A stretch of 64,000 nucleotides of DNA from Laccaria trichodermophora. Lineage: Eukaryota > Basidiomycota > Agaricomycetes > Agaricales > Hydnangiaceae. Positions 7,059 to 59,641 of this stretch are shown here, in pieces; within the stretch, counting starts at the first letter, position 1; each line of letters opens with the position of its first letter. The DNA lies in contig JACTVC010000005.1 in assembly GCA_018417955.1 (NCBI GenBank), forward strand, positions 1,736,001 to 1,800,000, given 5' to 3'. The notes beneath the pieces were generated by a model, which saw only the letters and a list, made by a program, of their open reading frames with translations, ran no database searches and was not told the origin of the DNA. The position numbers and the translations under genes are program-made.

Positions 7059-7088
7059 TTTTTTCAACCGTTTTTCCTCAACTTTGCG

Positions 7089-8564: not shown

Positions 8565-10827
8565 GGCTTTTGTCCAGGCATCGCTTTCTCTGCATCTTCC
8601 TTATTCTGACTTCTCCTCCTCAATTATCCCTTGTCCCCCCTTGAATTGCACCTCTTCTGAGGAATCTCTTCTTTTCCACAGAATCCTGCACCCATATCAT
8701 CCCGACGCCTTCGCGTTCTTACTGCGCAAACATGACCTTCTCAAAAGCTATCCCCTCCTCCCCTTCAATCTGCGCTTTGGCTTCCCTATCGGGCACATGC
8801 CTGATCTCTCTCAGACCGTTATCATGCCTAACAACCCTTCTATCCTTTCTTACCCCGACACCGTCGCCGACTACCTTACTAAAGAAGTCAAAGCCGGCAG
8901 ACTTTCAGGCCCGTTTTCCCGACAAGTTGCAGAGCGGATTCTGCGTGGCCCCTTTCAGTCCTCATCCCTTATCGTCTCTGTTCAGCCACAAGAACCTGGG
9001 GTACACGACAAATTGAGGGTTTGCCAACACCTTTCAAAGGCTTCCAAGATTCACGCTTCCGTTAATTCATACATCCGCAAGGATGACTTCCCTACGCGTT
9101 TTGACACCGCATCCAAAGTGGCTGACATCGTGAGTATCTCTCTATTCTGTTCCTTTCCCCACCTTTCTTCCTTCTTCTTATGCATCTCCTTTGCGTTTCG
9201 TGCGTGGAGATGCTTTCTTACTAGCGCTGGTCTTGTGCCCAGTCGCTCCTTGGGTATTTTTGCTTCATGCAAGTTACCTATTTTCTGTATCATCCTTTCT
9301 CTTCCGTGCCGCTGGCACGATGATTATCTTCCACGTGTTGAGCGTGATGATCCCTCTTCCGTGCGTTGAGCGCGATGACTCCTCTTCCACACGTCGAGTG
9401 TGATGATTATCTTCCATGCGTTGAGCGTGATGACATCTCTGTGCATTGGCGGCAATGATGCTGCATGTATCATGCTTCAGAGTCATCACATATGTTATAG
9501 GCTGCGCCTATCACTTCGCTTTTGCTGTGTCTTGTACATCATCAATGATCATCTTATCCTTATCTTCTTGCTGTATCTAACTCTCTTTTCTGTACATCTT
9601 GCTCATGTCCCTTTGATCTTTGTACAGATTTCTCATGCACCTCCTGGAACGCAGGCATGCACTCTCGATATTAAAAAGTTCCATCGCACGTGCCCCGTTC
9701 TTCCATCCCACAAACCTTGGCTTGTTGTCCAAGGGACTTCGGACGATTTCTTTATTAATCATGCTCACCCATTCGGAGCCGCTTGCGCCAGCAGTAATGC
9801 TGGCATGATTGCGAATGCCGTCGTCGATATTTGGAGAGCCGAAGGTGTTTTCCCAGTGCCGAAATATGAAGATGATTTGAAAGCCTTTCGATTCCCTTCA
9901 CCTTCGGGTTCCTTCATCGATGGGGATTTCCGCTATGACTACGATCGCGACGAGATGCTTCGCCGTATTTCTTCTTTAGGAGTGCCTTGGCATGATGAGA
10001 AGGGTGACGAACGGTTCTCCTTCGTCACGACTTTCATCGGATTTCTTTGGGACATTCCTTGGAAGCTTGTTAGCTTGCCAGAGGGAAAGAGAAACAAATT
10101 CCACCAGCGCGTCCTTCAATTTCTGATTGACTTTGAAGGCCGACCTTGTCATTTACGCGATGTTGAAAAGATTCATGGATCTCTTTGTCACATCGCCTTT
10201 GTTTATCTAGATGGTCGCTCTCATCTACCTTCCCTCTCCAACTTCGCGTCTACCTTCCATGGTGACGAATTCCTTACAAAGTATCCTCCGCACTCTCTGA
10301 TCACTGACTTGAAGTGGTGGTTAGTCAAGCTCACCTTACGTGGTGTATCCCGATCCCTTCACCCTCTTGGTCCTTTATCTGACCTTGGGCTCTACGTTGA
10401 TGCTTCCACATCATGGGGCATTGGAATTATCATTGACGGCGAATGGGCTGCTTTCCAGCTCTCTTCCTCTTGGAAAATTGAAGGTTGAGATATTTGCTGG
10501 CTCGAGACTGTGGCTATTGAGCTTCTTGCTCTTTTCTTGGAGTCCAGGGGTCTTCGAGATGCTCACCTACTCGTGCATTCTGATAATCAAGGCACTATTG
10601 GTGCTCTGGATAAAGGCCGTAGTGGTAATATCCATCTTAACCTTGCAGTTCGTCGTACGCATCTCATCCTTATGGCTACATCTCTCGTCTTTAAAACTGT
10701 CTACATTGAGTCTCAAGCTAATCCAGCTGATCCTATCTCGCGCGGGGAACCAGGACCTGCTGGGAAGCAAATCTTCCCATCTTTCAAGCTCCCTGATGAG
10801 CTTTCCTCTTGTTTTCTTCATGCCTAG
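8146..10827 (+). CDS. Ngaro reverse transcriptase-RNase H, copy A (intron; in-frame stop)
   Basis: The first exon (in this frame to 9129) carries the RT fingers, with DKLRVCQHLSKASKIHASVN and later DDFPTRFD. A 498-nt intron (9130-9627, GT-AG) follows. The second exon carries TLDIKKFHRTCP, GAACASSNAG and the palm motif KYEDDLKAF, in place of the usual xxDD box. RNase H follows: LYVDAS near 10390, ELLALFLES, VHSDNQGTIGAL and ANPADPISRG. A TGA at 10486-10488 falls inside RNase H, between SSWKIEG and DICWLE, and is present in copy B too. A CGA-to-TGA change would explain it. The upstream start is uncertain because the frame overlaps ORF1. The protein should copy element RNA into DNA. Confidence 0.75.
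9300..9470 (+). repeat. Minisatellite inside the RT intron
   Basis: About five degenerate units of 30-40 bp share CTTCC(A/G)(T/C)G(C/T)GTTGAGCGTGATGA. They lie wholly in the 498-nt intron, and the same array is present in copy B (57230-57400). Confidence 0.7.
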
Positions 10828-10887
10828 GTTAGCCTCCTTAAGGACAACTCTGTGTCTCTCCTTGTTTATTCTAACATCTTTTTTCAG

Positions 10888-12453
10888 CTTAGATCACCCT
10901 TTTAAACCGGCAACACGTGTTGTCGAGACGACTGTGGGTGGTTCACATCTCGTTCCTCCGTGCCCCACACGTCGTCATAATTTCTGTAATCCTTTCAAGC
11001 CTCGCACCATCACATCCTCTTCTTCACACGTATCTGCTCCTGCACCGCATTCTCTTCACGTTACAACTACTCCACTACCACCATCACCAACATCTACTGA
11101 CCACCTTACTCCTGATACATTATCTTCAACATCCCGGCACATTCAGCCCCGGAAACCTCATGCAGGACGGGAAATCTCTCAAAACTCTCTACGTCCCCAC
11201 GTCGCTGCTGCAGATCGCTTATTTGTTTGGGATACACCCCACGCTGCTCGTCACCGACAACACCTCCTTGCTTCTCTTCCCCCACACTTGGTTAACAGTG
11301 CCATGATGTCCATCCGCGGTGCATATGCACCTAACACAAAGTCCACGTATGCTGCCGGCACTCTTCGCTTCACCCAGTTTTGTGACAGGTGGGATATCAA
11401 TGAAGAAGCGCGAATGCCGGCCTCTTATCCTCTGCTTTGCGCCTTCATTGGGGAGTATAAAGGCAGACAAGCTGGGAACACTATACGTTCTTGGCTTTCC
11501 GGCATCCGTGCATGGCATGTCGTCAATCATGCTCCTTGGTATGGAGATGATGAATGGGTTCACCTTGCCCGGGTGTCTGCGAACAAAGAAGGGACAAAGC
11601 ATAAACGTCCTCTTCGCGCACCTGTCTCTATTGAGCACCTGTTGGCTCTTCGCCGTGCTCTCCATCTCTCCACTCCTTTCCATGCAGCGCTTTGGGCCCT
11701 CGCTCTGTGCACATTTTTTGGCTGTCGACGGCTAGGCGAGCTGGCTGTTACCACCGCTGCTGCCTTTGATGAGACGTATCATGTACTTCGCTCCGTTATG
11801 TATGCTATTTTCTTATTTCTTGGTATCTCCTGCTTATATTCTGTAGGATTACTTTCCGGACATTGCGGGATGGCTCCTCCTCTGCAAGCTTCCACATCCC
11901 TTGGACTAAGACTACGAAGGAACTCGGCGCCTCTGTGATTCTAACTGCACGGAATGATGTCCTGTGCCCTGTCACCGCCTTGAAGAATCATCTTGCTGTT
12001 AATGCGTCCGTTGACCACTCCGCTCCTCTTTTCGCATATGCGACCGCTTCCTCTCAATCAAATTTTCTCCTCAAAAATGAATTTCTCCTCAAAAATGAAT
12101 TTCTCAATTTTTGCAATCACATTTGGTCATCTGCCATGCTCGCCCATGTTCTGGGCCATAGCTTTCGTATTGGCGGTGCCGTCGAACTTCTTCTTGCCGG
12201 CGTATCTCCAGAAATTGTGGCTGCAACAGGAGGCTGGACTTCTCTAGCCTTCCTGCTCTACTGGCGCCGCATGGAGGAGATTCTTCCGATGAGTACATCA
12301 AAAGCATACAACAAGTCCCATCTGGACTCGTTGGCCGCAATCTTCGAACAGTTTCGTATTAACAATAAAATCCCTCCGGCACTTATTGTTGCCTCTGATG
12401 GGAACCTCTCCTTGTCACCTGTAGTTGGCAGTGTTGTGCAAGCAACACTATGA
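10888..12453 (+). CDS. Ngaro tyrosine recombinase, copy A, tail altered by KDZ insertion
   Basis: Exons about 10888-11775 and 11847-12453 join in phase across a 71-nt intron. The N-terminal core-binding part has GAYAPNTKSTYAAGTLRF and IRSWLSGIRAWH. The catalytic part has FGCRRLGEL (first Arg), GHSFRIGGA (His-x-x-Arg), TGGWTS and a probable nucleophile Tyr in FLLYWRR. This is the integration enzyme of DIRS-like elements; it works on circular DNA and leaves no target duplication. Copy A has an extra 18-bp tandem unit near 12062-12097, adding six residues (LLKNEF) that copy B lacks. The KDZ transposon entered after DGNLSL and replaces the stop, adding about 11 foreign residues. The start of the frame is uncertain. 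Confidence 0.75.
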
Positions 12454-12530
12454 TTAGAGTCACTTGTGTTGTGCACAATTGACTCTAATCCCTAGATGGT
12501 GCTTGCACAACGCTTGCACAACTTTACTGT
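12416..12530 (+). repeat. KDZ left terminal/subterminal region
   Basis: Contains TTGTGCAAGC, GTTGTGCACAA and two adjacent GCTTGCACAAC units. There is also a perfect 11-bp hairpin, GATTAGAGTCA (12452-12462) with TGACTCTAATC (12480-12490). Probably the transposase recognition region. Confidence 0.6.
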
Positions 12531-12837
12531 AGTTGTCCCTTTGCCTCATTTAGCCTCTACACACCGAGCCTCCGTCCACAGGGAGACGTGAGGCCGTGAG
12601 GTGCCACAGTTCACCTTGGCGTGCACCCGACTATTTCCCTTTTCAGACATGATCTAAATTTAACGTGGCAACTCCTATTTATGGTTCTGAGGGACCGCAT
12701 GTCACTACTTATGTAATCATAGATTTTCCGCACATTATCAAGAACATTATCTACATATTTTTGTCGCTGTCCCAGACAACGTCGAGAGGGTAAGACTCAA
12801 AAAATAAAATAAAATCTGAATAAATTGTAAAAAAATT

Positions 12838-15800
12838 CTATACATCGTCGTCGTCCTCATCAGCCTCTGCTACTTCTGGGGGAATGACACTCTTATCCTC
12901 CCACTGTATGTAGGCTGGGACGAACCGCCAAATGTGTTTGCAATATGCTCGCATAGCGTGGAACTGTGCTGCTTGCTCTTTCGCATACCCTATGCGCCCC
13001 TCTATCAATGCTTTATCAGCGCCATGTGTACCCCTTGTCGCCGACCACCTCTTCTCAACCGCGTTCTCATCCCAATCGCGAGCGCGGCTGGCAAAGAAGT
13101 CGAGCACCCGTCGCATCTCTTCAATGAGTAGCTGGACCTCCTCAGTCCACCGAGCTGCCCGTGCTTTGCTTTTGCAAAATTCAATCCGGAGATCTAGCCA
13201 TGGCAGTAAGAATGGGAAATCCAAGTTTGAGTGTGTACGCACCCTCGACCAGATGCTCGCCTTCAGACTCAAGCACCCTTTCACCAAGCCGCCTCCAAAT
13301 CCACGAGAGTGTTCGATGTCCCTCGGAAGCTATGGTTGCAGGCGCACTCGCTGCATCACCGGACTTCTTGCGCATTGGAACGGTGTCATCTGGATCGGAG
13401 AGAGCTCGGATATCCGATGGCTTCAATACAGGAAAATTCGGTTCCCACCCCACGTCGTCGACGCCAGGAAGCTTTGATAATTTATGGAGTAATACATGCG
13501 CGTTCTGGTATGTGACTGCGGCGAAATCGACTCTTGCTTGAACACGGTGAATGACAGTCCTGGAACGCGTGTTTGCACGTTGTCCACGCTGAAATCGGTC
13601 CTTATCGATGTAGAGGTGTGACCGTAGTCGTAAGGAATTCCGGAGTTCATCGAGGGCGTCATTTGCTTGAGCCTGTCGCAGTCTCCATTCCATCTGTCGT
13701 AGTCGAATGTCGCATGAGTGTTTCTTTGGCAGCACAGATGGTAGCCAGAGCTCAATATCCTCAACCTTCTCCTCTGCATCATGATCACTGCGCTCCTGGG
13801 CCTCCAATCGGGCAATGCGAGTGCTAGGCATGTACAGCTGCTGAACGTCCATCCAAGAAAAGATTTTGCGCTGAAGAGTGGTGGCGCGAATCTGTATCTT
13901 CCTTTTCTGGTCATCTGTAGCATGAAGGCCCAACGCATCTATGTCTAGCTTCAGGCGACGTCTAATGAGAAGGGAAGTAAGTACAAATAATACCATGTAG
14001 TGAAGGGGTTAAGATGAACGCACTTTTGAATCTCAAAATCCATGCCCATTGTGAGCATCATGCTTGCTGAGATGTCCTCGTGGAGTATGTAGGCCACTCC
14101 CGATGCCAGCTCCGCAGCCTCTGTGAGGGCAAGTTGGTGCTTCACCGAATCCAGGGTAACCTCTGAGGGAGCAGATGAGATCACAACTCGGATGCTTACT
14201 GAGTGGACATACTTTTAAATGACGCCTCAAACGGGTTGGGTTTTTGATGATCTTCTTCCCAATCTATGAGTTCCTTCTCCCATTTTTGAACAAGATCGTC
14301 GTCCGCAATGCCGATAACAAATTGATTATGAAGGAAGACATGGTCATTCATGCCAACGACAGCCAGTTTAATTTTTCGAAGCAGAGTTGGGCCTAATAAA
14401 TTGACATGTTAGTTTAGCAAACCATAATAAAGAGATAAAGAGAGCACCCATTAATTTGGTTTTTTTCCAATTCCATGCCCCGAAGTGATCGTCAAGGGTG
14501 TCTCGACGTGAGCCTGGGCCCATTTCCCGCGTACTTGTTGCAATGGGGTTGATATGTGACCACCCTCGTTCAGGCGCCTCACCATCGGTGCGGCCCACAT
14601 TGCGGTTGTAGTTGAATGAGAATATGGTTTGACAGGCCATGATGTGTGCAGGGAGGTGGAACTTGGGGACAAGGAAGTGAAATTGCTTCTCACCATCATG
14701 GTCGACGTGCATCCAGTGAGGGTAAGATGACATTCGGTTCCACAAGTTCTTGCTCCATTGACATGCAATATCATATGAGACGACGATCTCCATGACATCA
14801 CTGTGTTTGAGACTACTGAAAAAAAGGTAATCCATGTTGACGTATCTATTGATCAGGAATGAGTCAAATATGATATAATATGAGTAGAATTCAATACATG
14901 CCGTTCGCCCTTCTGTAAATCTCCCACTGAAGTTGGTCGCTTGATGTCATGTCTTGAGCAATCAATGGTGCCGACACCAGTTGCAGCGAGTCCAGTTGAC
15001 GATCGCTCAGCATTAACTGCATTGTGATTCGAACATGTACTGGGCTACATCAGAAAAGTAAGAATTCAGAAGGGAGAGGATGAAATCATCAAGTACTCGC
15101 CTCCTGGATGATGAGATCTCCAAAGTCCTTCAGGTAGTTCTTGAAGTCTTTCTCTGCGACGAAGTAAGCTTTTCCATCCAGAAGGCTGGGGTCTGCTTCA
15201 TCGCTTGACACCGCCTTCCGCTTCAATCGAAAGTTGGCATCAATAGCGAGAAACAAGCAGTAGAGGAATCTGTTCTCGCAAAGTAAGTTTTATTTATTAT
15301 TCAAGTTGTTGATGAAACCTTTACCGTAATTCAGGAGGCGCATCCTGCCATCCTTCCGGAAGATTCTTACCTGGCTGGGGACATGCTGGACACAAGACCG
15401 CACATTCCCCAGGACGTGTGGCAGTAATGCCACCAGGATCATGCCCTCGAGCAGCGCGCTTTAGCATCTTAATATATCTGAACTGGCGTACAACTCGCAT
15501 AAAAGGTCGGTAACGATCCTGTAGAAACTCAATGAACGAATTATTTTTTAGTCGACCAAAGACTCACCTTCAAAGGCATTATACCTGTATTTTCCGTTTC
15601 ACGTGCCAGAGCTGTGTAGAATTCAAATGCTGAAACCTTCGATTCGAAGCTGAGGATTTGAAAGTGTTTGAGCAAGCGAAAAGTCACTGCAGTCTTGGGA
15701 CTTCTGACACTGGCCGGGAACCATCGGAATCGGAGAAGTTGGATAAAATGATCTTGTGCGCGTTCACAATTACAAAAGTCCAATCCTACTTCATGAATGC

Positions 15801-16626
15801 CCGTAGTATCAAGAACAACGAAGTCGTTATTCCATGCAGGTTGTGGTACATGACAACGTTCTCTGAGTCGGTGACCTAGTTGAATTCGTAGCCCCAGTTT
15901 CTTAAGCGTTGTTGGTTTAAAGAAAGAACCCGTCCACTCCTATAATAATTGATTAACTGTAGAAGGAGGTATAAAGATAAGAACACACCTGAATGCGATG
16001 CAGTGGGTTGGCTCGGTGGTAATCAACCATGCATGTTTGACAAATTAACTCCCCCCCTTCGCAATCCTGGCACCTATACAGTGTCTCAGAGCCCAAGCAC
16101 TGACAACAGTTTTCCATCATGTACTCCCCCCTCCCTTCCCACCGAATATCTTCCTCCAGAAACACATCGCTATCCTTGATCCATTCTTTCAATGGGTAAT
16201 CCTTTAATTAAGTTGAAATCAGCTTTGAAATAGATTGAAATACAACGGCGTACTGAAGGTCTTTTTTTTTCGCGGCCCTACAGAAATGAGGTCGTCACTC
16301 AATGCATCAAAATAAGCAGGGTCTATGGCTGCAAGCTCTGCGAAAGCATCGTCCATTGTTGAAGAGAGATTTGGGAGGGTTGTGGAATCATCACTGATAT
16401 TGGGATAGCTGGTAGGAAAGTCGACTGAAGGCATACAAGTTTCTTGTTCTACTTCAAATTGTACATGCTTGGTATTTACTGAGAGCGCATGGTGACCATG
16501 TCGATTAACGCGTTGGGTGAATTGAAGGACGGGAGTGATAATTGTGGTGGTGGGCTGAGTGTCAGGATCCTCGTCATCCGAAAGCTCTGCAGGTCGTGGC
16601 TCGGAGCGTTTCCGTTTGGGAGGCAT
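12838..16626 (-). CDS. KDZ transposase (CxC2 cysteine cluster)
   Basis: The gene reads right to left from an ATG at 16626 (MPPKRKRSEPR). Recognisable blocks of the KDZ family appear in order. First is the CxC2 zinc cluster (YRCQDCEGGELICQTC, PLHRI; 16000-16110), then LGLRIQLGH, FCNCERA and LLRFRWFPAS. Next come GHDPGGITATRPGE with CPACPQPG, DANFRLKRK, TGLAATGVGTIDCSRHD and VGDLQKGER. Then MDYLFFSSL, SYDIACQW, PKFHLPAH, GRTDGEAPERGW and GPGSRRDTLDDHFG, and the C-terminal QLYMPS, NDALDELRNSLRLRSHLY and WTEEVQLLIEEMRRVL blocks. The product is roughly 1,000 residues. Introns keep phase at 13194-13242 and in the stretches near 14000 and 14200. One at 14846-14901 appears to be GC-AG. The exon 1-2 junction near 16255-16270 needs a one-base change in an A9 run to join in frame, so a slippage frameshift is possible. 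Confidence 0.85.
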
Positions 16627-16811
16627 TGGATTGGTGTGGCAAGAATGACTTGGGTTGGTGAAGCACTCTGTGACGGTGTTTTCGCTGCACCTGACAACTA
16701 CCATGCGATCTGATCGCAATCAACATCAACTGATCAATGGTAGAAATCAATCAAGATCGGTTCTAATGTTCAAATAAATAGGAGCTTAAGCTCCCCTTTA
16801 TCTTCAACAAA
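16627..16811. promoter_or_regulatory. Probable bidirectional promoter
   Basis: 185 bp lie between the divergent ATGs of the KDZ transposase (-) and the small gene at 16812 (+). The stretch contains TGATCAATGGTAGAAATCAATCAAGATC and the AT-rich AAATAAATAGG, which could serve as a TATA-like element. Assigned by position only. Confidence 0.35.
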
Positions 16812-17188
16812 ATGAAGAGCAACTGCAAATCGTTGGATGGTCTACAAGATATCCCGAACATGGAAAGTGTCTGTGGATTGTATCAAGTATACGAAGATTC
16901 AAGGCCTATCCTATTGTGAGTGTTTTAATTTTAATTTTATTTGAATGGGGATGACTATTTTTGTGGCTATTAGCAACCACATGCTGACACGGAAATCAGA
17001 TTTTCCAGGGATTTGGGAGGTGTATTGGTCAGTCTATTGATTTGAACTACAAAGTTTTTTTCATGGATACTCTGCACAGCTCAAAGTGTGGAAAGCCTTA
17101 CTACTTCTACAAAGATGATGGGGCGGAGCGGTTGTACCTTGATGCAACATACATGGTGCGCATGCAAAAGATGAGACAGAGTACTTAG
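16812..17188 (+). CDS. Small two-intron gene in the KDZ element, unknown function
   Basis: Three exons, 16812-16915, 16974-17021 and 17080-17188, join with matching phases (2, then 2) and total 261 bases, giving 86 residues ending at TAG. The predicted protein has CKSLDGLQDIPNMESV near the start, and SKCGKPYYFYKDDGAERLYL then DATYMVRMQKM near the end. I do not recognise a family. Introns of 58 bp each with GT-AG borders and consistent phase argue for a real gene. The composition (charged, Tyr-rich C-terminus, two or three cysteines) allows a small binding protein but shows no function. It is head-to-head with the transposase and its 3' end is 70 bp from that of the TET/JBP gene (convergent). 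Confidence 0.45.
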
Positions 17189-17257
17189 GCTGGGTGTTGA
17201 GGAAGCGGAGAACATCAATTCATGCACATGAGATCAAGATATGAAATTCTAATCTAA

Positions 17258-19034
17258 CTACTTGGCAAATACACGTCGACGATCCTCATTTAACTCAGTC
17301 AGCTTCGAAAAGAGACTGAGTGCCCTTTCACAACGTTCAGTATAGTTACCGTTAATCTCCAACAAGCGTGCTTTACCCTCAGCAAGGATAAGTTGATCCT
17401 TCGTCCTGAAACCATACTTCACCCAGCGGAACAACCCCCCAGCAACAAACTGAGTAAATGACATTCGAGTCTCACCTGGCTGGATAGGCGTGTTACCATG
17501 CCGAAAAACCGCCGAAGGAATGAGAATAGTGGAGCCGGGAGGAAATTCAATGATAAGCTTAAGATCGAAGATAATCATATGACCGCCAAGCGTGTAGTCG
17601 TAGTCGCCAAGCGCTGTGATCGCGCAAAGACCATGAGCGACGTTGGCGGAATCAGTATGATCGAGGGTGATTGTATTGGGGCCTAAGTTGAACGTTGATG
17701 CGGTAAATATCGATTTTTCGAAGTTGTGGATGAGAGTCAGGTCGTGGTCGAATAGATCGCTTAATAAGTAGCGATATTCGTCAAAGAGTTTGGGAGCGTA
17801 GATGGCGAAAGCGCCTGAAGAGGGGACAATCAGATGAAGTGGTAGCATCGTAGATCATAGAACTTACATGATTGCCATCCGGCGACGCGCTGAATGGCAG
17901 GATTATCCCGGAGTTCATCGACAAGTCCTTGTTTCGCTTTAGAAAGGCAAAGGTTTCCGGGTTTCTATAACACATGATTAGTATTGATGTGACTCAAGTA
18001 AAAAAATAGACTTACCGTCTGCCCACCACCATAGGATACACCAGATGTGACAGGCGTAAAGTGACCGCGTCGATGTTCCTTGTCTTCCGCGGTGAATATG
18101 CCTAGCCGCTCACCATGAATGCGGACCGCGTTCATGGCAGCAGTCGCATCGCGAATGACCTGGTCCCAGTCTTCTCCCTGCGGCCTGCCTGCGAGTGGAA
18201 CGATGATACGGTTGGCAACGTCGAGCACAACCTTTGGGTTACTGTTGACAATAAGTTAGCGGGTGTCATACAGGACAAAATGTGAAATTTACGTCGCATC
18301 CCACTTGAGTACATCAAATCCCCTCCCTTTCAACTCATCCACCGTCCACTGAGAACTTTTGGTGGCCTTCTTGCGTAGCGCAATCCAACAATTGGATGAG
18401 ACACGTAGCCTGGAGGTATCGAACTTCGTCTTCATCCCAGTGATGATGAGACGTTCAGCGGCAGCAAAACGAGGTCGAAAGGCAATGCGATTGGGGTGGA
18501 GCAGCTTCTGCTTGGCTTTGGATTCCGAGCGGCGCAGTCGGCTACGATCCTTCCCGCGAGCTTTTTCGATCTTGCCAGGAGGGGCAGCAGTAGTGCGACG
18601 TGTGGTGAGACGTGTTTGATATCGAGAGTTGATGGGTGTTGTGGGTGGATGTGGAGGTGTCGTGTGTGTGAGGTCAGTGGGACCTTGAGGGCTGATGATG
18701 TTGTCATCGTCGACGTCGTCCTCGATGTCGTCGTCTTCGATGTCGCTGTCTCCCTCGTCGCCGCGGGCATCGTCCCTTTTAAAAGCACGGCAAAAGAGTT
18801 TTGCCACCTGGATGCCGCATAACACGGCATCGAGGAGGCGAGAAAACTTGCGACCAGATCGTGTCTAAGTAAAGGGCGTTAGCGTGTAGATACCGAGGTG
18901 ACGAACCCATACTTACGGTGCGAGGTTTGAAAGTCTGAGAAATCAATCAATGGCATGAGTATCTAGCAATTGAGGTTGATATGGAAACACTGACTTACCG
19001 TGAACGGGTCAAAGTCCTTGAAACCGTGGGGCAT
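17258..19034 (-). CDS. TET/JBP-family 2-oxoglutarate/Fe(II) dioxygenase
   Basis: Six exons on the minus strand: 19034-18999, 18934-18917 (an 18-nt microexon), 18864-18293, 18241-18016, 17964-17868 and 17814-17258. They join in phase to 501 residues. The N-terminal third is low-complexity, with an acidic run (DSDIEDDDIEDD) followed by a basic stretch. The catalytic part has GVSYGGGQT, TASTFNLGPNTITLDHTDS with the metal ligands His369 and Asp371, GLCAITALGDYDYTLGGHM, EFPPGSTILIPSA, FRHGN with the distal His422, and GETRMSF with the 2-oxoglutarate-binding Arg433, then AGGLFRWV. These are the conserved residues of fungal TET/JBP enzymes, which oxidise 5-methylcytosine (some also N6-methyladenine) in DNA. 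No stop or missing ligand is seen, so it looks catalytically complete. The enzyme is expected in the nucleus. Its divergent 5' flank holds long minisatellites. Confidence 0.9.
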
Positions 19035-19084
19035 ATTGACCAGGATCTAGTGATCTAAACAAGATATGTCAGTGAACTTGCATG

Positions 19085-19640
19085 CACAAATGTGAAAGAA
19101 CGGAGGCGGGGAGGAAAAGGTGGAAAAGAGCGAAACATGACGACGTGGGGGTGGAAATGGGCGAACGCGGGTGGGAGTGGGCGACGGGAGGTGAAACGTG
19201 AAGACGTGGGGATGAAAAAGGGCGAAGGGGGGTGAAAAAAACGCGACAGGAGGTGAAAAAGGGCGAAGAGGGGTGAAAAAGCGCAAATGCGGGCGAGGCG
19301 TGAAGACGTGGGGGTAATAATGGACGAAGGGGGTGGAAAACAGCAAAAGCGGCCAACACGTGACGACGTGGGGGCGAAAATGGACGAAATCGACGCAGGG
19401 GGGTGAAAAGTAGCAAAGGTGGGTACAACGTGAATACGTGGGGGTGAAATTGAACGAAGGGGATGGAAATGGGCGCAGGGGGGTGAAAAACAGCGCAAGC
19501 GGCCCACACGTGAGGACGTGGGGGCGAAAATGGACGAAGGGGCCAGAAAGGGACCGGAACGAGCGAAAACGTCGGCAGGCGTGTACACGCGGGGTGGGGT
19601 GAGGTCACCAGGGTGCGCATGGGTGACGCTCCGCTGCATG
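19085..19640. repeat. Purine-rich minisatellite upstream of the TET/JBP gene
   Basis: Degenerate units of roughly 55-60 bp contain GACGTGGGGG(C/T)GAAAATGGACGAA, GGGGTGAAAAA and CACGTGA-like boxes. The strand asymmetry is marked: G/A-rich on the plus strand. Long open frames on the minus strand across it are composition artefacts. Confidence 0.75.
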
Positions 19641-19904
19641 CCACTCACTGCAAGAAGAGAGGAGTGTCAATCTGCCAGTGTGCGCTTGGGTGACGCTCGC
19701 CTGCACAGACAACGATGTTTCGGGAGCGACGTACCTTTTTTGAAGATTTTGGTGGAAGGAGGGAAGCAAGGGAGCTTCATCGCGTTTGAAAACCTTGAGT
19801 GAGATTAAATGTAAAACGGCGCGGGTGGACGAGACAGTGAGGAAAAAAGATGGCAGCAGGAGAAGCGTTCCAACGCGCCAAACGAGGCCTGATTTGATCG
19901 GATA

Positions 19905-20610
19905 GGCATTCACGCGTGAACATCTTCCCCGCGGAGATGTGAACTTCGCGTGAACTTCACGCATGAACTGCGTAAACTTGACGTGAACTGGCGTGAATCT
20001 GACGTGAACCCGACGTGAACGTTGCGCAAACTTCTTGAACTCGTCAATTGAGTTGAGAAGTTGCTGTTCTAGTTACAATCAGACTACTAAGAGACCATAA
20101 AGGTTTACATTACTCACCTTTAAAATTTGCAAGTGTGCGAGGCAGATGCCAACGCTATTTGCAAACTATTTGTTCACGTTTCTGATGCGTGTTCACATTT
20201 CTGATGCGCAAATGTATTAGAAAGATCGCCTCAAACCAAGAAGCGTTTTTCGAGGTAAGAAATGTTAGTTTGAGATACAATTACCCTATTGATACACCAT
20301 GGGACTTATATTATTCGAGATTTGCAAGTGTTCGATACCGATGTTCACATTTCGCGTTCACATTTCGCGTTCACATTTCGCGTTAACTTGGTGCGCAAGC
20401 TTATTCGAGACATCTCCTAAAACTAGGAAGCATTATTTGAGGTAAGATCTTGCCATTCTAGATACAATAAACCGATTGAGATACCATAAACACGTATATT
20501 ATATACCTCCCTTGAAATTGGCAAGTGTGCGAGACAGATGCCAACACTATTTGTTCACGTTTCGCTTCGACTTCCAACTATTTTCAACCCATTATCTCCA
20601 CACTATATTT
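19905..20610. repeat. GTGAAC / GTTCAC repeat region
   Basis: At 19905-20035 the motif (G)CGTGAAC recurs about ten times in direct orientation. At 20180-20385 the opposite motif GTTCACATTTC recurs, including three perfect 14-bp copies of GTTCACATTTCGCG at 20342-20383. A larger unit of about 170-200 bp (ACCATAA..., GCAAGTGTGCGAGGCAGATGCCAAC) is repeated around 20090, 20300 and 20480. The region separates the divergent TET/JBP and 20619 genes. Confidence 0.65.
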
Positions 20611-20618
20611 CATTCTCC

Positions 20619-21478
20619 ATGGGTCGCACCCGAACCTCATCTGAAACTAAAAGCAAAAGAAACAAGACTGCTTCCAGTGTAGCAGGAAGTGATAAACTAA
20701 CGAGAGACCAACGTTATTACAGAAGGTTGTTCAAACATTCTTACAATTGCTGACGGTTCACACTTTCTTTTTTCACAGTCACCCAGAGCTTAGGGAGAAA
20801 TCAAAACTCCGAATGAGACAGAAGCGAGAGAAGGAGTACATTTAATTTGGTCCTTCAATCAATGCCATGTACTGACCTGAAATTAGAAAGGCGAACAAGT
20901 TACTTAATTTAAATCTGTCCACCACACGCACTGTCAAGGACGTTGTTCTACCACCGGTCAACCGTAACCAGGAGCTCTTTTCAGAGGAGTTTGATATAAC
21001 AGAATTTTCTCGATTCTGCGAAATCCGTGATCGCGTACATGCTTGGGCCTTGCCCTGGGGTGGAAGTTGGGCCTGGCACCACAAACTTGATTCCGAATAT
21101 CAAAAAGCTACCAAGGAAGATAGGGTTGAACATTGGGTTGGAGAGATGCTAAACCACGCTGACATTGGTCGGGAATTAATGGAGGACCTCTCAAGCATGG
21201 AAGGCCATCTCCCAAATTCTGATTGGCAAATAAGGGAATTGTGGAGAATTGAAGTAGAATTGCTTCGCATTATCACGCAGGGTTTGGCAGCTCTTGAGGT
21301 GCGCATAAATTTATTGGGCAGCACGGTGCATGGCCTCTTGTCAGATTATCAATGGTTACGCAGAAAGGAGGAAGATGAGGGCCAGGGAGAGGACAGCCAG
21401 GATGAGGGGGAGGAGGGCAAGGACAACCAGGATGAGGGTGAAGGTGAGGGCTTTGAGGACGGGAATGAGAGTAGATAG
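20619..21478 (+). CDS. KDZ-element passenger protein with basic N-terminus and acidic tail
   Basis: Exons 20619-20725, 20779-20835 and 20887-21478 join in phase (756 bases, 251 residues). The N-terminus is strongly basic: MGRTRTSSETKSKRNK, RDQRYYRRSHPELREKSKLR and RMRQKREKE, the last two resembling a basic/helical nucleic-acid-binding stretch. The middle holds a Trp-rich segment (VHAWALPWGGSWAWHHKL) and amphipathic helices. The C-terminus is an acidic repeat of EDSQDEGEEGKDNQDEGE type. I recognise the basic motif as common in agaricomycete transposon-associated proteins, but no named domain. A DNA-binding helper of transposition is a guess. It lies head-to-head with the TET/JBP gene and converges on the minus-strand gene at 21572. 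Confidence 0.62.
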
Positions 21479-21571
21479 ATCATTATACGCAACATCTAAA
21501 ATCAAGGTTGAGAGCATGCAAAATTCAATTTGACAAACTTTGAAAAATAAAATTGATGAATTGTTAATACG

Positions 21572-22393
21572 CTAGTGGTCCACAATATTGACAGGATCGT
21601 TGGGAGTAATTACACGACGAGTGGTAGCTACCGTGACTTCAACAACACTTCCAGCTAGGACGGCAGCCTGGTATGCTGCGAGGGCACGATGCATATCTGA
21701 AAATCGCTGCACTGTTCCGCCTGGGGTGCCAGTAGAGTTTCCACTAAGGTGGTACCTACCAATATTTATATTAGATATCAAAGAATATGTGGAAGATAGA
21801 AACATTACGCACGCGCCGCGATAGACACCTGGTGCCCGGCCCACAGTAACTGCATACCAGCGGTGGTCCTCAGTGGCAGGATCGGCAACCAAAGGGGTTG
21901 CACTTTCTCCTGCTGTGGAAGTGCCACCAGCTGCGTTCTCAATGGATTCTGAAAGTGAAGTGTTAAAATAAAATGAGAGCATTCCAGGCAGCAACCGTAC
22001 CATTAGCTCCAATGACCTGATATTCAGAAAGAGAATCGTCCGGTAAGGTAGCAAGGGCTTTTGCATAGGAATTAGAGATAGCGTGTTAGATAAAATAACA
22101 ACGAACCCTGTGTGACCTCTGCGATTGTGTTGAGTCCTTCTTGAGTAAGGGGGTCAGGTATCATATCTAGCTTCGATGAGCATCTGAATGTCCACAATGA
22201 AAGAGAAAATGCGCCATACGCCTTGTAGCTGGATAGATGAATGAGATTATAAGCATCAAAAAGGCAAACCAGAATACTAACCTCTCTCAAAACGTACAAC
22301 CAGTCTAGCCATTGACGCTGCAGCTTCTAAAGCGGTCAAGCAGGAGCGGCAAGGCTCGTTCTGGGCCGCTTGCTGCAGGGGGATGTCAGACAT
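21572..22393 (-). CDS. RNase H1 N-terminal (viroplasmin-like) domain protein
   Basis: The C-terminal exons encode RWYAVTVGRAPGVYRG, an intron of about 60 bp near 21760-21810, and RYHLSGNSTGTPGGTVQRFSDMHRALAAYQAA. This is the RNase H1 N-terminal hybrid-binding fold (W/FYAV..GR.PGVY ... F....A..AY). No catalytic RNase H domain follows; the protein ends about 25 residues later. Upstream pieces PDPLTQEGLNTIAEVTQ and ATLPDDSLSEYQVIGAN on the same strand look coding and join by short introns. The ATG at 22393 (MSDIPLQQAAQNEPC) is likely the start, but the joint between exon 1 and the next exon could not be made in frame, so the 5' model is uncertain. Members of this fold bind RNA:DNA hybrids or double-stranded RNA. 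Confidence 0.6.
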
Positions 22394-22454
22394 GGAAGGG
22401 TTGGGAATGAAAAGTGACGAAGAGGAATAAATTCTATACATCGCTTGTTATTGA

Positions 22455-22705
22455 CATTAGTTTGGCAGAATCGCCAAGGATGTGATCTACAATTTATCCA
22501 AATGCGCAGTGCACACATGGTTTATCCGCATGTGCAGTGCACTCAAGGTACATAAGAAATTGGGATGCACGCATTAGAATTTAACCGAACCTCAGATAGA
22601 AATGCCAAGGATACAATTTATCCAAATGCGTAGTTCACACATGATTTATCCACATGTGCAGTGCCCTTAAGATACATAAGAAATTGAGATGCATGCAATA
22701 GGTAG
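22455..22705. repeat. Direct repeat, two units of about 130 bp
   Basis: GCCAAGGAT..ACAATTTATCCAAATGCG, CACATG.TTTATCC.CATGTGCAGTGC and GTACATAAGAAATTG.GATGCA(C/T)GCA occur at about 22470-22575 and again at about 22605-22703. The two copies are roughly 85-90% alike. Confidence 0.65.
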
Positions 22706-23091
22706 CGAGGAGATGGTGTGCCTAAAATAGAATATGATCGGTTTCCAAATATATCTTAGTGTTTGCTGGAGAGTCCAACCCCCGGGGTGGAAGTTTGTAC
22801 TGAGGTGGAAGTTTGAGGTGTAGAATATTTATGCAATAGATCTAGAGTGATAATTGGTATCTGGAAGAGTTGAAGAAATGGAGATGTGAAGAATGGGGAA
22901 AAATAAGAGGAGATTTGAAATTGTATACGAAAGGGCTTACTGGAGATCAAAACGAAAATACGGAAAGATATTTGTCTGATGTACTGAAAATAATCAGCAT
23001 GGTGGAAGGAGAGAAATCACCCACCTTGAATTATATCCGTCAGTTCGACCTCTGTCACTTCACCTCGTCATTGAATTCTTTGCCGTCCATC

Positions 23092-25862
23092 ATGGGAAAA
23101 TCTTCTATAACCGATGAGCAAAAGAAATGGCTCGAATCCCATATTCCAGCGTTCGCTGAAGCACAGAAGAAATCAACGGTTGCACGCTTTCACTCACACA
23201 TCGCTGAAGGCTGGTTCGAGAAATATCCTGAACGCAATGCTCTCTTTCCAACAGCGGCCGGTGAGCCGTCAGCAGTTCTTACCCCACCACAGGAGGATGA
23301 ACTTCGTGATGCCATAAAGGCTAGAAAGAAAGTAAGTAAATTTTAATTGCGGTACTAGAATTCACTTAACTTACGCCCCTTTTAGCAACTCAGAAATTGG
23401 TTCAACTGGAACGCTCGTGGATACAAGCGCTCCTCTGATAGCTCCGTATTTTCAAATATGTTGATGCAGAGCTTAGTGAAGAACAAGCGCTCCCGGAATT
23501 TGAACGCGGCCGAAATTTATGGGAAGTTGTATGCGGAGAAGGTTCGAGAGGCGGTCAGTGCAGCCAAGGCTGACCAATCTGGAGGGAAACTTTCTCAAGG
23601 TGAGTAATTTATTGCAATGTTTAATTGATAAACGGTCTGATCAGCATTACCAGGAGAGCACCTTATTCTCTTCAAGAGCGTAAGGGCTACTCTATTTAGC
23701 GCTGAGTCGGAAGAGGTGAAGGCTGAAGTAGCTGCTGAGTGTCTCAAGCAGAAGGGCGGTCAGGACTCTGAGGATGGTAAAGAAGTTGATGGCGTGGACG
23801 ACAGTTGTGAGGTGGAGAAAAGTCCTGAGGATTTCCAAAAGTAGGCAATTTAGCGCACTGTAATTGCAAGTATCTCAATTTGACGCTATTGCATTCTCTT
23901 AGGGCAATAGATGAACTGCCTGATGTCCTTGACAAGATTTTTAACTGCTTGTGCGCATCGACTGGCTGGGCGTTTTTTATTGGATGCGCTGGTCCACTTC
24001 CAAAAGCTGGAGGGACAGTATATCAACATGAGTCCGTCATTCTCTTGTTTTATTCAACGCTATCTTATTAATCACCTTTTCATAGCTACTACTTTGGGCC
24101 AAAGAGTGATGGCGGCAGAGACTTCCATGAAGCTTACACGGGATTTAAAAAAGGCTTCGCCCTGCCATTTTCGCAATTTGTTCGAAATGCTTTTCGTAAG
24201 TACCGTTAGAATTTCTTTGTATATGTTTGACTTAAAACTGTTTCAGCACCAGAAGTCTGTCAGGAAAGAGCTTTCAGCTTCGCAGGAGCGGGACGTCCTA
24301 TCCTCGACCTCGATAATGACATAGCCGAAACCCAACCTATCCTTGATAGTGACGTCGTCAAAACCCTGATCGCCATGCCAAGATCTGAATCGCCTTCCAT
24401 CGAAATGATGCCATCAATCGGGCCTCACCTCTGTGAAAGTTCTGGGCCTTCTTCGGAACCTGACTTGTCACTACGAACATCAAGCGCACTGCCGCTAGAC
24501 GCTCCCCCGGTTCTTGACAGCTCATCTCTGGCCACTCCTGCTCATTCTCCACGAAAACAAGCCCTCGATCGATACCGCTCAGGCCAGACTCTCGAAACTC
24601 CTGGTGATGAGACTTCCTTCAGCATTGGCAGTGCCTGGAACGACAATCAAGATGGAGGTTTGGATGCTGCTCTTGGAGGAATGGTCTTGACTAATTCTAT
24701 TGAAGGGAGTGAAAAGAGATTCTCAATGTCAGGTGGGTCATCAGTGGAGGTGAACGGCTTACCATTGGCTCCAGGTGCGCCATCGTCACCTATCTCGCAT
24801 GCCTTCGCCCGAATGGATCAATCACTCTTCGCTCAAAATCGAACTCCTCCCCCTCCTGCTTCCTCACCTTCACCCCTTCGTGATCCCTTCATCGATCCTC
24901 TCCTTTATATGGAAAATATGGGGAAACCAGCATCAACTGCTGGGATTTTATTAGCATCGGCACCTGGGTTTGTGTTCCAGAGAACACCTCCCCGACGTGA
25001 GCCTTTAGCTGTCACAACTCAGGAGACGAGCGATCTTAACAACCCATTCGCAACCCTCGCATCTGATCCCCGTGTTTTTGGCCGTGCCCCAATCAATCCG
25101 TTCACGTTGGGTCGCACTGTCAATCCGCCTAGTGCATCACCTCCCAAAACCCCTTCATTGAGTGGCACTATCAATCCCTCTAGTGCAACACCTCCTAAGA
25201 CCCCTTTACCTTCGGCGACAGCCTCCGCACTTACCCCTACTCCATCTCCTTCATCCCCCCCTTCTTCAGCACCACCCAATTCAGAGGCATCCACTACGGT
25301 CAACTACACCATCCATGGTGCAACCATCAACGACGATTTGGCATCCCCAGACAGTGCAACCCAAGAACATCGTAAGATTCGACCACGACCACGACCACGT
25401 CCCATCAAGAAGCCTGGCGTCAATGCCACTCTTCTCTCTGGTGGTGGTGATGCTTGTAATGGCGATACGGAATCCGCTCCTGGCACAACCACTCACACAA
25501 CTATATCCGCCAGCGCTAACGCTGCTCCTGCAAGTAGCACCGATGCAACACCTTCCAACAATATGACCCCCGCACCTCCCGCAGCTGATGGCCCAAGTGA
25601 TAAGGAAAATCACGCGCCTTTGACTGAGCTGACCCGCTACGAGAAAGCAGCTCTTACTAGAGCTCGCAAAAAACGCGAGGCGGAAGAGGCGCTAGGTGCA
25701 TTGGATAAAGGAGCTAACGGAAAGGGGGACAGTGAGAAGGGGTCTAAGGGGTCAGGAAAGAAGCGAAAGGAGCCAGAGGGTGGTAAGGAGCCAGAGGGCA
25801 GTCGTAAGTCTCGAAGTGGCCGTGAAGTTAGGAAGCCAAATTATTGGGTACCGGAGGGATGA
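23092..25862 (+). CDS. 834-residue KDZ-element protein, unknown function
   Basis: Six exons, 23092-23331, 23386-23599, 23645-23840, 23903-24031, 24086-24195 and 24247-25862, join in phase (2,505 bases). The N-terminus reads SSITDEQKKWLESHIPAFAEA, a helix-rich start seen in many agaricomycete repeat-family proteins. It is followed by LRNWFNWNARGYKR, LYAEKVREAV and a conserved-looking stretch with GWAFFIGCAGPLPKAGGTV and FGPKSDGGRDFHEAYTGFK, ending FALPFSQFVRNAF. Exon 6 is a long Ser/Pro/Thr-rich disordered region, then a basic tail with YEKAALTRARKKREAEEAL, KRKEPEGG and RKSRSGREVRKPNYWVPEG. No named domain is recognised. An intact six-exon frame implies recent constraint. The basic tail suggests a nuclear, DNA- or chromatin-associated protein; this is inference. 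Confidence 0.7.
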
Positions 25863-25984
25863 GTACTGCTATTGTATTTGCACCATAAAATACATATAGC
25901 CCGTCTTCATAAAATTTGGAGCTAGTCTGGATTTCTGAGAGAGCCCTTGGTCTCGAATGGTTGAGGCACATAAAGAAATATCAT

Positions 25985-26075
25985 TTAAAAAAAACTCAAT
26001 GGTCAAGAATCGAACACAGAGCATCCTCATACACATAAGATTGACAATGCCAAACAATCCACTCAACCATATGAC
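25985..26075 (-). other. tRNA-like Pol III A/B box pair, possible SINE relic
   Basis: On the minus strand, TGGTTGAGTGG resembles a type 2 A box, and GTTCGATTC, about 60 bases downstream, resembles a B box. A T run follows. The arms do not fold into a proper tRNA. A tRNA-derived SINE fragment is possible. Confidence 0.3.
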
Positions 26076-26246
26076 TGATATAAGAATAGATATATTAAGA
26101 ATATACCAGCACCGGTCCTCCTTTAAGACTTTTCATTCAAAGTCCTTCGCTTTTTTCTAAGTCTTCTCTAATTGGTCAAAAAATACCTTCAAACACGCTA
26201 ACCCTAACAAAAAAAAATGTATGTCATATAAATAACTGCCAAAAGC

Positions 26247-26550
26247 CTGCCATCTGATCCTGCCAATCCAAGAGGAGGTGTGTCTGCCATGCCGCCATCT
26301 GTTACCAATGCCGCTGTTCTACCCAAAGGGGGAATTTTAAATGAATAGCCCGCCATCTGATCCCGCCAATCCAAGAGGAGGTGTGCCCGCATGCCACCAT
26401 CTATTATCAATGCCACTGTTCTACCCAAAGGGGGAATTTTAAATGAATAGCCCACCATCTGATCCCGCCAATCCAAGAGGAGGTGTGCCCGCATGCCGCC
26501 ATCTATTACCAATGCCGCTGATCTACCCAAAGGGGGAAGTAACCTATTTT
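26247..26550. repeat. 102-bp tandem repeat, three units
   Basis: Units begin CC(T/C)GCCATCTGATCC(T/C)GCCAATCC and contain AAGAGGAGGTGTG and CTACCCAAAGGGGGAA, at about 26247, 26349 and 26451. The period is divisible by three, so a minus-strand frame stays open, but no protein motif is seen. Confidence 0.8.
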
Positions 26551-26639
26551 GGGAAGGTGCTGAGGGCCTACCCTGTGAAAGCCAAGCCGTAGTGGTCCGA
26601 GGTGCCCCAAATGCGGAAGGAAGGGGACCAGAAACCCAT

Positions 26640-26769
26640 GTAGTGTGTTGTGCAAGCATTGTGCAAGCGTTGTGCACAACCCACAGTGACACAGACTACA
26701 GTGCGTTGTGCACAACCTATGTGACTAGGATTACAGTCAGTGTTTGCAAGTATATGACAGTACTGCCTG
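26640..26769 (-). repeat. KDZ right terminal/subterminal region
   Basis: Read on the minus strand it repeats the motif set of the left end: CAGGCAGTACTG terminus, TGACTGTAATCCTAG, two GTTGTGCACAAC palindromes and GCTTGCACAA units. Confidence 0.6.
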
Positions 26770-26968
26770 TCCTTGTGATTGTTCGTCTATGATCATCTAA
26801 CTTGTATTTATATCAATTCATAATGTCCTTTCTGAGCTCAATTATCATACTTATTTATCTATCCGGTATCTGTATTTCAATCTATAAAATTTCTCCCAGA
26901 GTGCTGCTTGATTGGGTAGTTCCTCTGTGCTGAACCAACTTGCTTGTTGTGAGCTTACACTCTGGTTG

Positions 26969-27652: not shown

Positions 27653-27885
27653 CCTGCAAACTATTCAAAGACAGGCTCTGTGTAAGGACAAACTAGGGAC
27701 AAACCTTGGAAGGAGTACTCAAAGCTAGCGGTGCCGTTGGTCCCATGCGAGGTGCGAAGGTACGTGGGCCCGAAATTCCCTAGACTATCGAGCTCATTGG
27801 ACGAGGTTTCAAACCAGGGTCCAGTGTAGTTGATGCTGCTATCATCATCGTCTATTACGACCCAACGAGCAGGCGAGGCCGACAT
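27653..27885 (-). pseudogene. Truncated exon 1 of a membrane-protein gene (duplicate)
   Basis: Coding 27885-27705 (SASPARWVVIDDDDSSINY...) and the start of intron 1 match 52732-52964 exactly in inverted orientation. The remaining exons are missing because the source copy was already cut here by Ngaro. No function expected. Confidence 0.85.
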
Positions 27886-36070: not shown

Positions 36071-36094
36071 TTCAATTTGAGCCGAAGATCGCCT

Positions 36095-54300: not shown

Positions 54301-55812
54301 TCACAAGGAGAGGTTCCCATCAGAGGCAACAATAAGTGCCGGAGGGATTTTATTGTTAATACGAAACTGTTCGAAGATTGCGGCCAACGAGTCCAGATGG
54401 GACTTGTTGTATGCTTTTGATGTACTCATCGGAAGAATCTCCTCCATGCGGCGCCAGTAGAGCAGGAAGGCTAGAGAAGTCCAGCCTCCTGTTGCAGCCA
54501 CAATTTCTGGAGATACGCCGGCAAGAAGAAGTTCGACGGCACCGCCAATACGAAAGCTATGGCCCAGAACATGGGCGAGCATGGCAGATGACCAAATGTG
54601 ATTGCAAAAATTGAGAAATTCATTTTTGAGGAGAAAATTTGATTGAGAGGAAGCGGTCGCATATGCGAAAAGAGGAGCGGAGTGGTCAACGGACGCATTA
54701 ACAGCAAGATGATTCTTCAAGGTGGTGACAGGGCACAGGACATCATTCCGTGCAGTTAGAATCACAGAGGCGCCGAGTTCCTTCGTAGTCTTAGTCCAAG
54801 GGATGTGGAAGCTTGCAGAGGAGGAGCCATCCCGCAATGTCCGGAAAGTAATCCTACAGAATATAAGCAGGAGATACCAAGAAATAAGAAAATAGCATAC
54901 ATAACGGAGCGAAGTACATGATACGTCTCATCAAAGGCAGCAGCGGTGGTAACAGCCAGCTCGCCTAGCCGTCGACAGCCAAAAAATGTGTACAGAGCGA
55001 GGGCCCAAAGCGCTGCATGGAAAGGAGTGGAGAGATGGAGAGCACGGCGAAGAGCCAACAGGTGCTCAATAGAGACAGGTGCGCGAAGAGGACGTTTATG
55101 CTTTGTCCCTTCTTTGTTCGCAGACACCCGGGCAAGGTGAACCCATTCATCATCTCCATACCAAGGAGCATGATTGACGACATGCCATGCACGGATGCCG
55201 GAAAGCCAAGAACGTATAGTGTTCCCAGCTTGTCTGCCTTTATACTCCCCAATGAAGGCGCAAAGCAGAGGATAAGAGGCCGGCATTCGCGCTTCTTCAT
55301 TGATATCCCACCTGTCACAAAACTGGGTGAAGCGAAGAGTGCCGGCAGCATACGTGGACTTTGTGTTAGGTGCATATGCACCGCGGATGGACATCATGGC
55401 ACTGTTAACCAAGTGTGGGGGAAGAGAAGCAAGGAGGTGTTGTCGGTGACGAGCAGCGTGGGGTGTATCCCAAACAAATAAGCGATCTGCAGCAGCGACG
55501 TGGGGACGTAGAGAGTTTTGAGAGATTTCCCGTCCTGCATGAGGTTTCCGGGGCTGAATGTGCCGGGATGTTGAAGATAATGTATCAGGAGTAAGGTGGT
55601 CAGTAGATGTTGGTGATGGTGGTAGTGGAGTAGTTGTAACGTGAAGAGAATGCGGTGCAGGAGCAGATACGTGTGAAGAAGAGGATGTGATGGTGCGAGG
55701 CTTGAAAGGATTACAGAAATTATGACGACGTGTGGGGCACGGAGGAACGAGATGTGAACCACCCACAGTCGTCTCGACAACACGTGTTGCCGGTTTAAAA
55801 GGGTGATCTAAG
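54301..55812 (-). CDS. Ngaro tyrosine recombinase, copy B
   Basis: Same two-exon frame as in copy A (intron 54924-54854). The natural stop TGA follows GNLSL at 54301-54303. Catalytic motifs FGCRRLGEL, GHSFRIGGA and FLLYWRR are present. It lacks the 18-bp internal duplication of copy A. Differences from copy A in the coding part include Cys/Tyr (ALCTFF against ALYTFF) and Ala/Thr (VTALK against VTTLK). This is the more intact of the two enzymes. The empty KDZ target TCCTTGT overlaps the last codons. Confidence 0.78.
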
Positions 55813-59611: not shown

Positions 59612-59641
59612 CGCAAAGTTGAGGAAAAACGGTTGAAAAAA

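What the first reader, a model, noticed from the sequence alone, without database searches (positions are those of the whole stretch)
12416..26769. A KDZ transposon carrying a complete-looking TET/JBP DNA oxidase and four further genes
Transposase, dioxygenase and three or four additional multi-exon frames lie between inverted subterminal repeats and a 7-bp target duplication. An empty site is preserved in a second Ngaro copy in the same window, so the boundaries are exact to a base or two. The TET/JBP gene keeps all metal and co-substrate residues (His369, Asp371, His422, Arg433). A transposon that brings its own 5-methylcytosine oxidase could demethylate its own or its target chromatin. The general KDZ-TET association is known; the full cargo list and precise ends here may be new.
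Basis: partly seen in the sequence, partly recalled or inferred. Interest (0 to 1): 0.9.

Follow-up and report, generated by a model that had tools for sequence, protein, structure and literature searches.

The report
Fungal transposon with TET-like enzyme
A jumping gene in a fungal genome carries a remote relative of the enzymes that erase DNA methylation plus three further conserved genes, and seven more copies with the same left end sit in the same genome.

Summary
The element is real and exactly bounded: 12416-26769, flanked by TCCTTGT, with a perfect empty site in the second Ngaro copy. Seven other copies share its left end; six of the seven copies with both ends (window included) have 7-bp duplications. 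KDZ+CxC2 transposase, 7-bp duplication and CA..TG ends match TET+ Kyakuja transposons published in December 2025: the class is known.

Three things go further. (1) Three further genes (G3; a protein with an RNase H1 N-terminal domain; G5) sit in fixed order, with dN/dS well below 1 against diverged copies. All three recur in that order in a divergent complete element (C23) without a detectable dioxygenase. (2) The dioxygenase is not the published "AG" type: it misses Pfam's TET/JBP cut-off, finds no CcTet, and has Asn and Cys where CcTet has Gly331 and Asp337. The genome holds 27 loci of this kind and 73 of the Pfam kind, mostly beside different transposase clades. (3) Copy-specific mutations are mostly CpG transitions, as deaminated 5-methylcytosine gives.

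Best reading: a KDZ transposon with its own anti-silencing module. 5mC oxidation is inferred. The window's transposase has an extra A in a homopolymer.

The parts
12409..12415 (.). left target site duplication TCCTTGT
12416..26769 (.). the KDZ (Kyakuja-like) element, 14354 bp, ends CACCTGTAG...ACTGCCTG
12433..12522 (.). left subterminal repeats GTTGTGCA (4 of the 9 occurrences; none in the interior)
12838..16626 (-). KDZ transposase with CxC2 domain, 11-exon model, 1071 aa, one GC-AG intron at 14846-14901; extra A at ~16262 relative to the seven other copies
17258..19034 (-). TET/JBP-like 2-oxoglutarate/Fe(II) dioxygenase, 501-aa model, H369-x-D371, H422, R433
19154..19545 (.). five degenerate 80-nt repeats between the two gene blocks, in a stretch poorly conserved between copies
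20619..21478 (+). G3: unknown protein, three-exon model (20619-20725, 20779-20835, 20887-21478)
21572..21982 (-). HBD gene: RNase H1 N-terminal domain (PF01693) over its cut-off after removal of a 57-nt intron; 5' end uncertain
22689..25862 (+). G5: unknown protein, 922-aa model of seven exons; part shared with C15b and C23 begins near Met 23092; low-complexity C-terminal part
26241..26538 (.). ~102-bp direct repeats near the right end, variable in other copies
26647..26716 (.). right subterminal repeats GTTGTGCA (5 of the 9 occurrences)
26770..26776 (.). right target site duplication TCCTTGT
54303..54309 (-). empty site, single TCCTTGT, in the second Ngaro copy

Best explanation
A recently active KDZ DNA transposon of Kyakuja-like structure. 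Its transposase binds subterminal GTTGTGCA repeats, cuts at CA..TG ends and inserts with a 7-bp stagger. It carries an accessory block that protects it from host silencing. The dioxygenase, a remote TET/JBP relative, oxidises 5-methylcytosine on the element's own CpGs. The HBD protein binds RNA:DNA hybrid or duplex RNA made from the element, and G3 and G5 are nuclear DNA-binding or adaptor proteins. Shown: ends, duplications, empty site, copies, gene order, low dN/dS, excess of CpG transitions. Inferred: enzyme substrate, repeat binding, and the roles of HBD, G3 and G5.
For: Seven further copies, and six of seven perfect 7-bp duplications. C15 and C56 are 99.7% identical to the window copy over the main alignment; W, C15 and C56 have only 5, 5 and 11 private substitutions. 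Nei-Gojobori dN/dS, window against C15b: transposase 0.07, dioxygenase 0.12, G3 0.18, HBD 0.05, G5 0.14; against C14: 0.09-0.29; against C8: 0.23-0.38. Private substitutions in six copies: 70 of 110 are CpG transitions against 18 C-to-T/G-to-A elsewhere, about 16-fold per site. The same three extra genes in the same order and orientation in the complete C23 element, duplication CGTTCGG. 16 of 27 dioxygenase loci of this kind have a scored KDZ transposase within 10 kb, all 2.8-4.8 kb away.
Against: The enzyme misses the Pfam cut-off and finds no TET structure, so its substrate is open. C23 carries the other genes without it, so it is not essential. 11 of 27 loci of this kind have no scored transposase within 10 kb. 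W, C15 and C56 each carry a one-base homopolymer difference in the transposase frame, and five of the seven other copies have a stop in it. In the near-identical pairs the dioxygenase shows no constraint (dN/dS 0.94 to C15, 0.78 to C56), on only 4 and 7 changes. CpG observed/expected of the window copy (0.84) is close to the rest of the window (0.87), and no host control was run for the CpG transitions. No expression, methylation or biochemical data. Structure predictions were unusable (pLDDT 40 and 47).
Confidence: 0.6

Rival explanations
1. The dioxygenase acts on something other than 5mC (6mA, thymine, RNA or a protein) and only shares the 2-oxoglutarate oxygenase fold with TET/JBP.
For: Sub-threshold Pfam match; one of four family members also matches 2OG-FeII_Oxy_3 at 0.0014; no CcTet match at E up to 10, while an AG-type enzyme of the same genome finds it at 6e-28; weak profile match to that AG-type enzyme (hhalign probability 2.6%).
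Against: All four members scanned match Tet_JBP at E up to 1, best 3.7e-5; HxD...H...R kept in 4 of 4; Asn at the Gly331 position is what hTet2 has there (Asn1387; PMC11040006 passages); linkage to a KDZ transposase as with the Pfam-kind TETs.
Confidence: 0.3
2. The three extra genes and the dioxygenase are passengers, caught by chance and carried without function.
For: None has a proven function; C3 has lost the right half and C8 is decayed; C6 ends soon after G3, apparently without HBD and G5.
Against: dN/dS well below 1 in all five genes against C14, C8 and C15b; order conserved to the C23 element with transposase pieces only 35-72% identical.
Confidence: 0.07
3. The filled/empty pair arose by deletion from the second Ngaro copy rather than by insertion.
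For: Only two Ngaro copies were compared.
Against: Perfect 7-bp duplication at the filled site with a single copy at the empty site, and five other copies with unrelated 7-bp duplications at the same ends.
Confidence: 0.01

Closest known systems
TET+ Kyakuja transposons (Kojima 2025, PMC12730594)
   Same: KDZ transposase, 7-bp target duplications, 5'-CA..TG ends, no TIRs, a TET/JBP-family enzyme in the element
   Different: Published ones carry the AG type (CcTet-like, Asp337 kept, Gly or Ser at 331). The window's enzyme has Cys and Asn there and finds no CcTet. In the parts I read no HBD, G3 or G5 genes are named; Table S1, the sequence data and the figures were not seen.
CcTet of Coprinopsis cinerea (PDB 7vpn, 8jkk; PMC11040006, passages)
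   Same: HxD...H...R metal and co-substrate residues
   Different: No sequence match at E up to 10; Gly331 and Asp337 replaced by Asn and Cys
KDZ1 of Cryptococcus neoformans (PMC12810828, passages)
   Same: ~11 kb KDZ DNA transposon with a cysteine-cluster domain
   Different: 241-bp TIRs, 8-bp duplications, CxC1 instead of CxC2
RNase H1 N-terminal domain (PF01693); hybrid binding is recalled knowledge of the domain
   Same: HBD protein over the Pfam cut-off in the window and in C23
   Different: No RNase H catalytic domain in the 117-aa model searched; it rides on a DNA transposon

Membership tests
KDZ superfamily | KDZ transposase domain PF18758 over cut-off | tested here: met
   8.5e-63, 212 bits, cut-off 26.6
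Kyakuja | 7-bp target duplication, CA..TG ends, no TIR | tested here: met
   duplication in six of seven copies with both ends, missing in C15; 6 of 20 end matches
Kyakuja | transposase groups with Kyakuja in a KDZ tree | not tested
   no named reference transposases were at hand; protein search switched off
TET/JBP dioxygenases | Pfam Tet_JBP over cut-off | tested here: not met
   18.0 bits (exon) and 15.2 bits (501-aa model) against 34.9
TET/JBP dioxygenases | HxD, distal His, Arg | tested here: met
   H369, D371, H422, R433; the same columns invariant in 4 of 4 aligned members
TET/JBP dioxygenases | oxidises 5mC | not testable with these tools
   needs assay
AG-type TET (Kojima) | close to CcTet, Gly/Ser at 331 and Asp at 337 | tested here: not met
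   Asn374 and Cys380, both invariant in 4 of 4 members; no CcTet match; positive control at C3 finds CcTet at 6e-28
PE-type TET (Kojima) | HxE in place of HxD | tested here: not met
   HTD
PU-type TET (Kojima) | clusters with Pucciniomycete sequences | not tested
   no PU sequence at hand
RNase H1 N-terminal domain | PF01693 over cut-off | tested here: met
   21.3 bits in the window, just over the cut-off of 21.0; 26.7 in C23

The most novel reading that the evidence does not exclude
A fourth kind of transposon-borne TET/JBP-like dioxygenase, outside the PU, AG and PE types, that has co-evolved with its own clade of KDZ transposases. In one subclade it works with a conserved three-gene anti-silencing block that includes a hybrid-binding protein, so that one genome hosts two parallel oxidase-bearing KDZ radiations.
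Probability: 0.4. Interest if true: 0.78.

Novelty: new variant of a known kind. Interest (0 to 1): 0.6.

Why it matters
It suggests that transposons took up or diversified methyl-cytosine oxidase-like enzymes more than once within one fungal lineage. It also gives a natural comparison (related elements with and without the oxidase) to test whether such an enzyme helps a transposon escape methylation. The hybrid-binding gene conserved beside it points to an RNA-linked side of silencing escape that can be tested directly.

Tried and rejected
Structure prediction of the dioxygenase core exon and the G3 exon from single sequences gave pLDDT 39.7 and 46.8; not interpreted, no fold search run. Own-genome loci were not put into a folding job because the tool's list of allowed sources does not name them. 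PDB searches with the HBD protein and G5 gave no usable match; the NCBIfam hits are far below cut-off and ignored. Deletion from copy B rejected. A hidden dioxygenase in C23 rejected: best profile E 1.2 over 436 frames, against 6.4e-65 in decayed C8, which was not in the profile, and no Pfam match in the three ORFs of the gap that I tried. C6 left end not found in the piece read, so its lack of HBD and G5 rests on the right end alone. An exchange of the oxidase block between lineages is possible but not separated from faster divergence. Iyer et al. 2014, the founding KDZ paper, is not held; whether it already describes this dioxygenase clade or these genes could not be checked.
Full report
OBSERVATION. 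The window is part of a 59-Mb genome of 77 contigs, G000:C45:1736001-1800000. No call names the organism; an agaricomycete is my inference from the KDZ and AG-type TET content. The element runs from 12416 to 26769. It is flanked by TCCTTGT on both sides, and the second, inverted Ngaro copy holds the empty site with one TCCTTGT. One arm of the two Ngaro copies is identical over 5243 bases, so the insertion is probably younger than their duplication. A 2-kb query from the left end finds the window and seven other places; a right-end query finds six of these seven again (C3 is missing). Lengths of copies with both ends run from 14237 to 18984 bp. Six of these seven copies carry perfect, mutually different 7-bp duplications; C15 does not.

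ENDS. The first and last two bases are CA and TG, there is no terminal inverted repeat (6 of 20), and the motif GTTGTGCA occurs nine times, all within about 125 bp of the ends. This fits Kyakuja as published: 7-bp TSDs, CA..TG, no TIRs (PMC12730594; I read parts 1-5 of 7 of the text and the figure legends; not the supplements).

GENES. Frames kept in the most distant copy (C15b, 79% DNA identity over the first 4.2 kb) mark, by my reading of a table whose printout was cut in the middle, five genes: transposase (minus), dioxygenase (minus), G3 (plus), HBD gene (minus), G5 (plus). My splice models come from a simple scoring script and have no transcript support. The transposase model needs one GC-AG intron. 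It has the KDZ and CxC2 domains. The HBD protein has the RNase H1 N-terminal domain, just over the cut-off. G3 and G5 match no Pfam family above its cut-off.

INTEGRITY. Against the seven other copies the window has one more A in a homopolymer of transposase exon 1. From the frames, the others should splice at an acceptor 16 nt upstream; the window keeps its frame only with the downstream one (inference). C15 and C56 differ by one base in a T and a C homopolymer, so assembly error is possible in all three. In the codon comparison C14's transposase shows no stop and no frame difference apart from the shared one; C15, C24, C3, C8 and C15b have one to five stops. C15b also shows indels not divisible by three in four of the five genes (HBD apart), some of which may be alignment artefacts. 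C15 and C24 carry the same CGA-to-TGA stop.

SELECTION. Pairwise Nei-Gojobori estimates, window against C15b: transposase 0.07, dioxygenase 0.12, G3 0.18, HBD 0.05, G5 0.14; dS is 1.1-1.6 and partly saturated. Codons compared there: transposase 1065 of 1071, dioxygenase 431 of 483, G3 155 of 196, HBD 91 of 117, G5 489 of about 875. Against C14: 0.09, 0.26, 0.29, 0.20, 0.21; against C8: 0.23, 0.31, 0.38, 0.29, 0.29. Against the near-identical C15 and C56 there are too few changes to judge (dioxygenase 0.94 and 0.78 on 4 and 7 changes; transposase 0.14 and 0.57). No likelihood test was run.

CARGO WITHOUT THE OXIDASE. At C23 lies a complete element of 13114 bp with duplication CGTTCGG and related ends. 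It has the transposase (35-72% identical in pieces), G3 (34%), HBD (38-40%) and G5 (27%) in the same order and orientation, and no dioxygenase: tblastn best E 7.8, profile best E 1.2. At C6 there is transposase (79% over part of the core exon), dioxygenase (60% in its core) and G3 (33-49%), then a recognisable right end about 1.1 kb further on (72% over 71 bases, E 1.6e-4); no HBD or G5 before it. Its left end and duplication were not found. C38 has a KDZ core (34%) and a G5-like exon (42%) about 4 kb apart. Genome-wide, G3 (9 loci), HBD (8 loci) and the G5 exon (9 loci) are found only in or beside such elements; more remote relatives would be missed.

TWO KINDS OF OXIDASE. A search with the window's enzyme gives 51 matches, 27 loci after merging within 3 kb. 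A search with Pfam Tet_JBP gives 76 matches, 74 loci, of which only C6 is shared; of the other 73, 70 are over the cut-off. The only one of the Pfam kind that I read, at C3, finds CcTet at 6e-28 with Gly331 and Asp337 in place: the AG type. The window's kind finds no CcTet at E up to 10, singly or as a profile (at E up to 1), and has Asn and Cys at those places, in an alignment without gaps around the motif (weak, probability 2.6%); both are invariant in 4 of 4 members. Residue roles are from passages of PMC11040006. Transposases differ too: 16 of 27 window-kind loci have a scored KDZ core within 10 kb, 38-100% identical to the window's. Of the 73 other loci 61 do, 31-36% identical; 60 of these fall below the 70th hit, the exception being C45:1978063, whose nearest hit is the 60th, 7.5 kb away. 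One window-kind pairing (C34:2233992) is to a short fragment, the last hit of the list. Only 150 of 207 transposase candidates were scored, so counts are lower bounds.

METHYLATION TRACE. Private substitutions in W, C15, C56, C14, C24 and C3 number 110, of which 70 are CpG to TpG or CpA and 18 are C to T or G to A outside CpG, about 16-fold per site. Old copy C8: 221 of 445 are CpG transitions and 90 are other C-to-T/G-to-A. CpG observed/expected is 0.46 in C8, 0.74 in C15b, 0.84 in C14 and in the window copy, and 0.87 in the rest of the window, so the young copies are not depleted. An excess of CpG transitions is what 5mC deamination gives; no host control was run.

MOSAIC. In 17.4-18.9 kb the window copy is 87.5-92% identical to C14 while the transposase half is at 96-98%; C14 to C8 is 89-95% there. 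Dioxygenase dS to C14 is 0.26 against 0.05-0.12 in the other four genes. The oxidase block may have been exchanged between element lineages or may diverge faster; I did not separate the two.

NOVELTY. The class (KDZ transposon with TET-family enzyme, complete ends) is in print. My searches listed no paper that, in what I saw (listings; passages of PMC12810828, PMC8290104, PMC8889193, PMC7473861 and PMC11040006; most of PMC12730594), describes the three extra genes or this oxidase clade. The library is open-access only and Iyer et al. 2014 could not be read.

Noticed in passing
about 6608-12408 + 26770-30182 and 51065-59855: Two Ngaro copies in inverted orientation, with arms identical over 5243 and 2584 bases: very recent duplication or gene conversion.
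   Followed up: partly
30553-36181: Long arrays of a 90-bp repeat (22 and 21 copies in two families, 60-91% alike, in opposite orientation).
   Followed up: no
17400-18900: The oxidase block is more diverged from C14 and C8 than most of the element: exchange between lineages or faster divergence.
   Followed up: partly
L009/L010 (G000:C15:318692-332928): A nearly identical copy without a target site duplication; possibly ectopic recombination.
   Followed up: no
G000:C22:659505-661129: A window-kind dioxygenase (46-69% identical in pieces) with no scored KDZ core within 10 kb and no match to the extra genes near: relic or host gene.
   Followed up: no
window 15005, copies C15 and C24: The same CGA-to-TGA stop in two copies of different subgroups, a likely CpG mutation hot spot.
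   Followed up: yes
74-172: tRNA gene (Rfam, 45.4 bits), 99 bases for a 71-position model, so probably with an intron.
   Followed up: no
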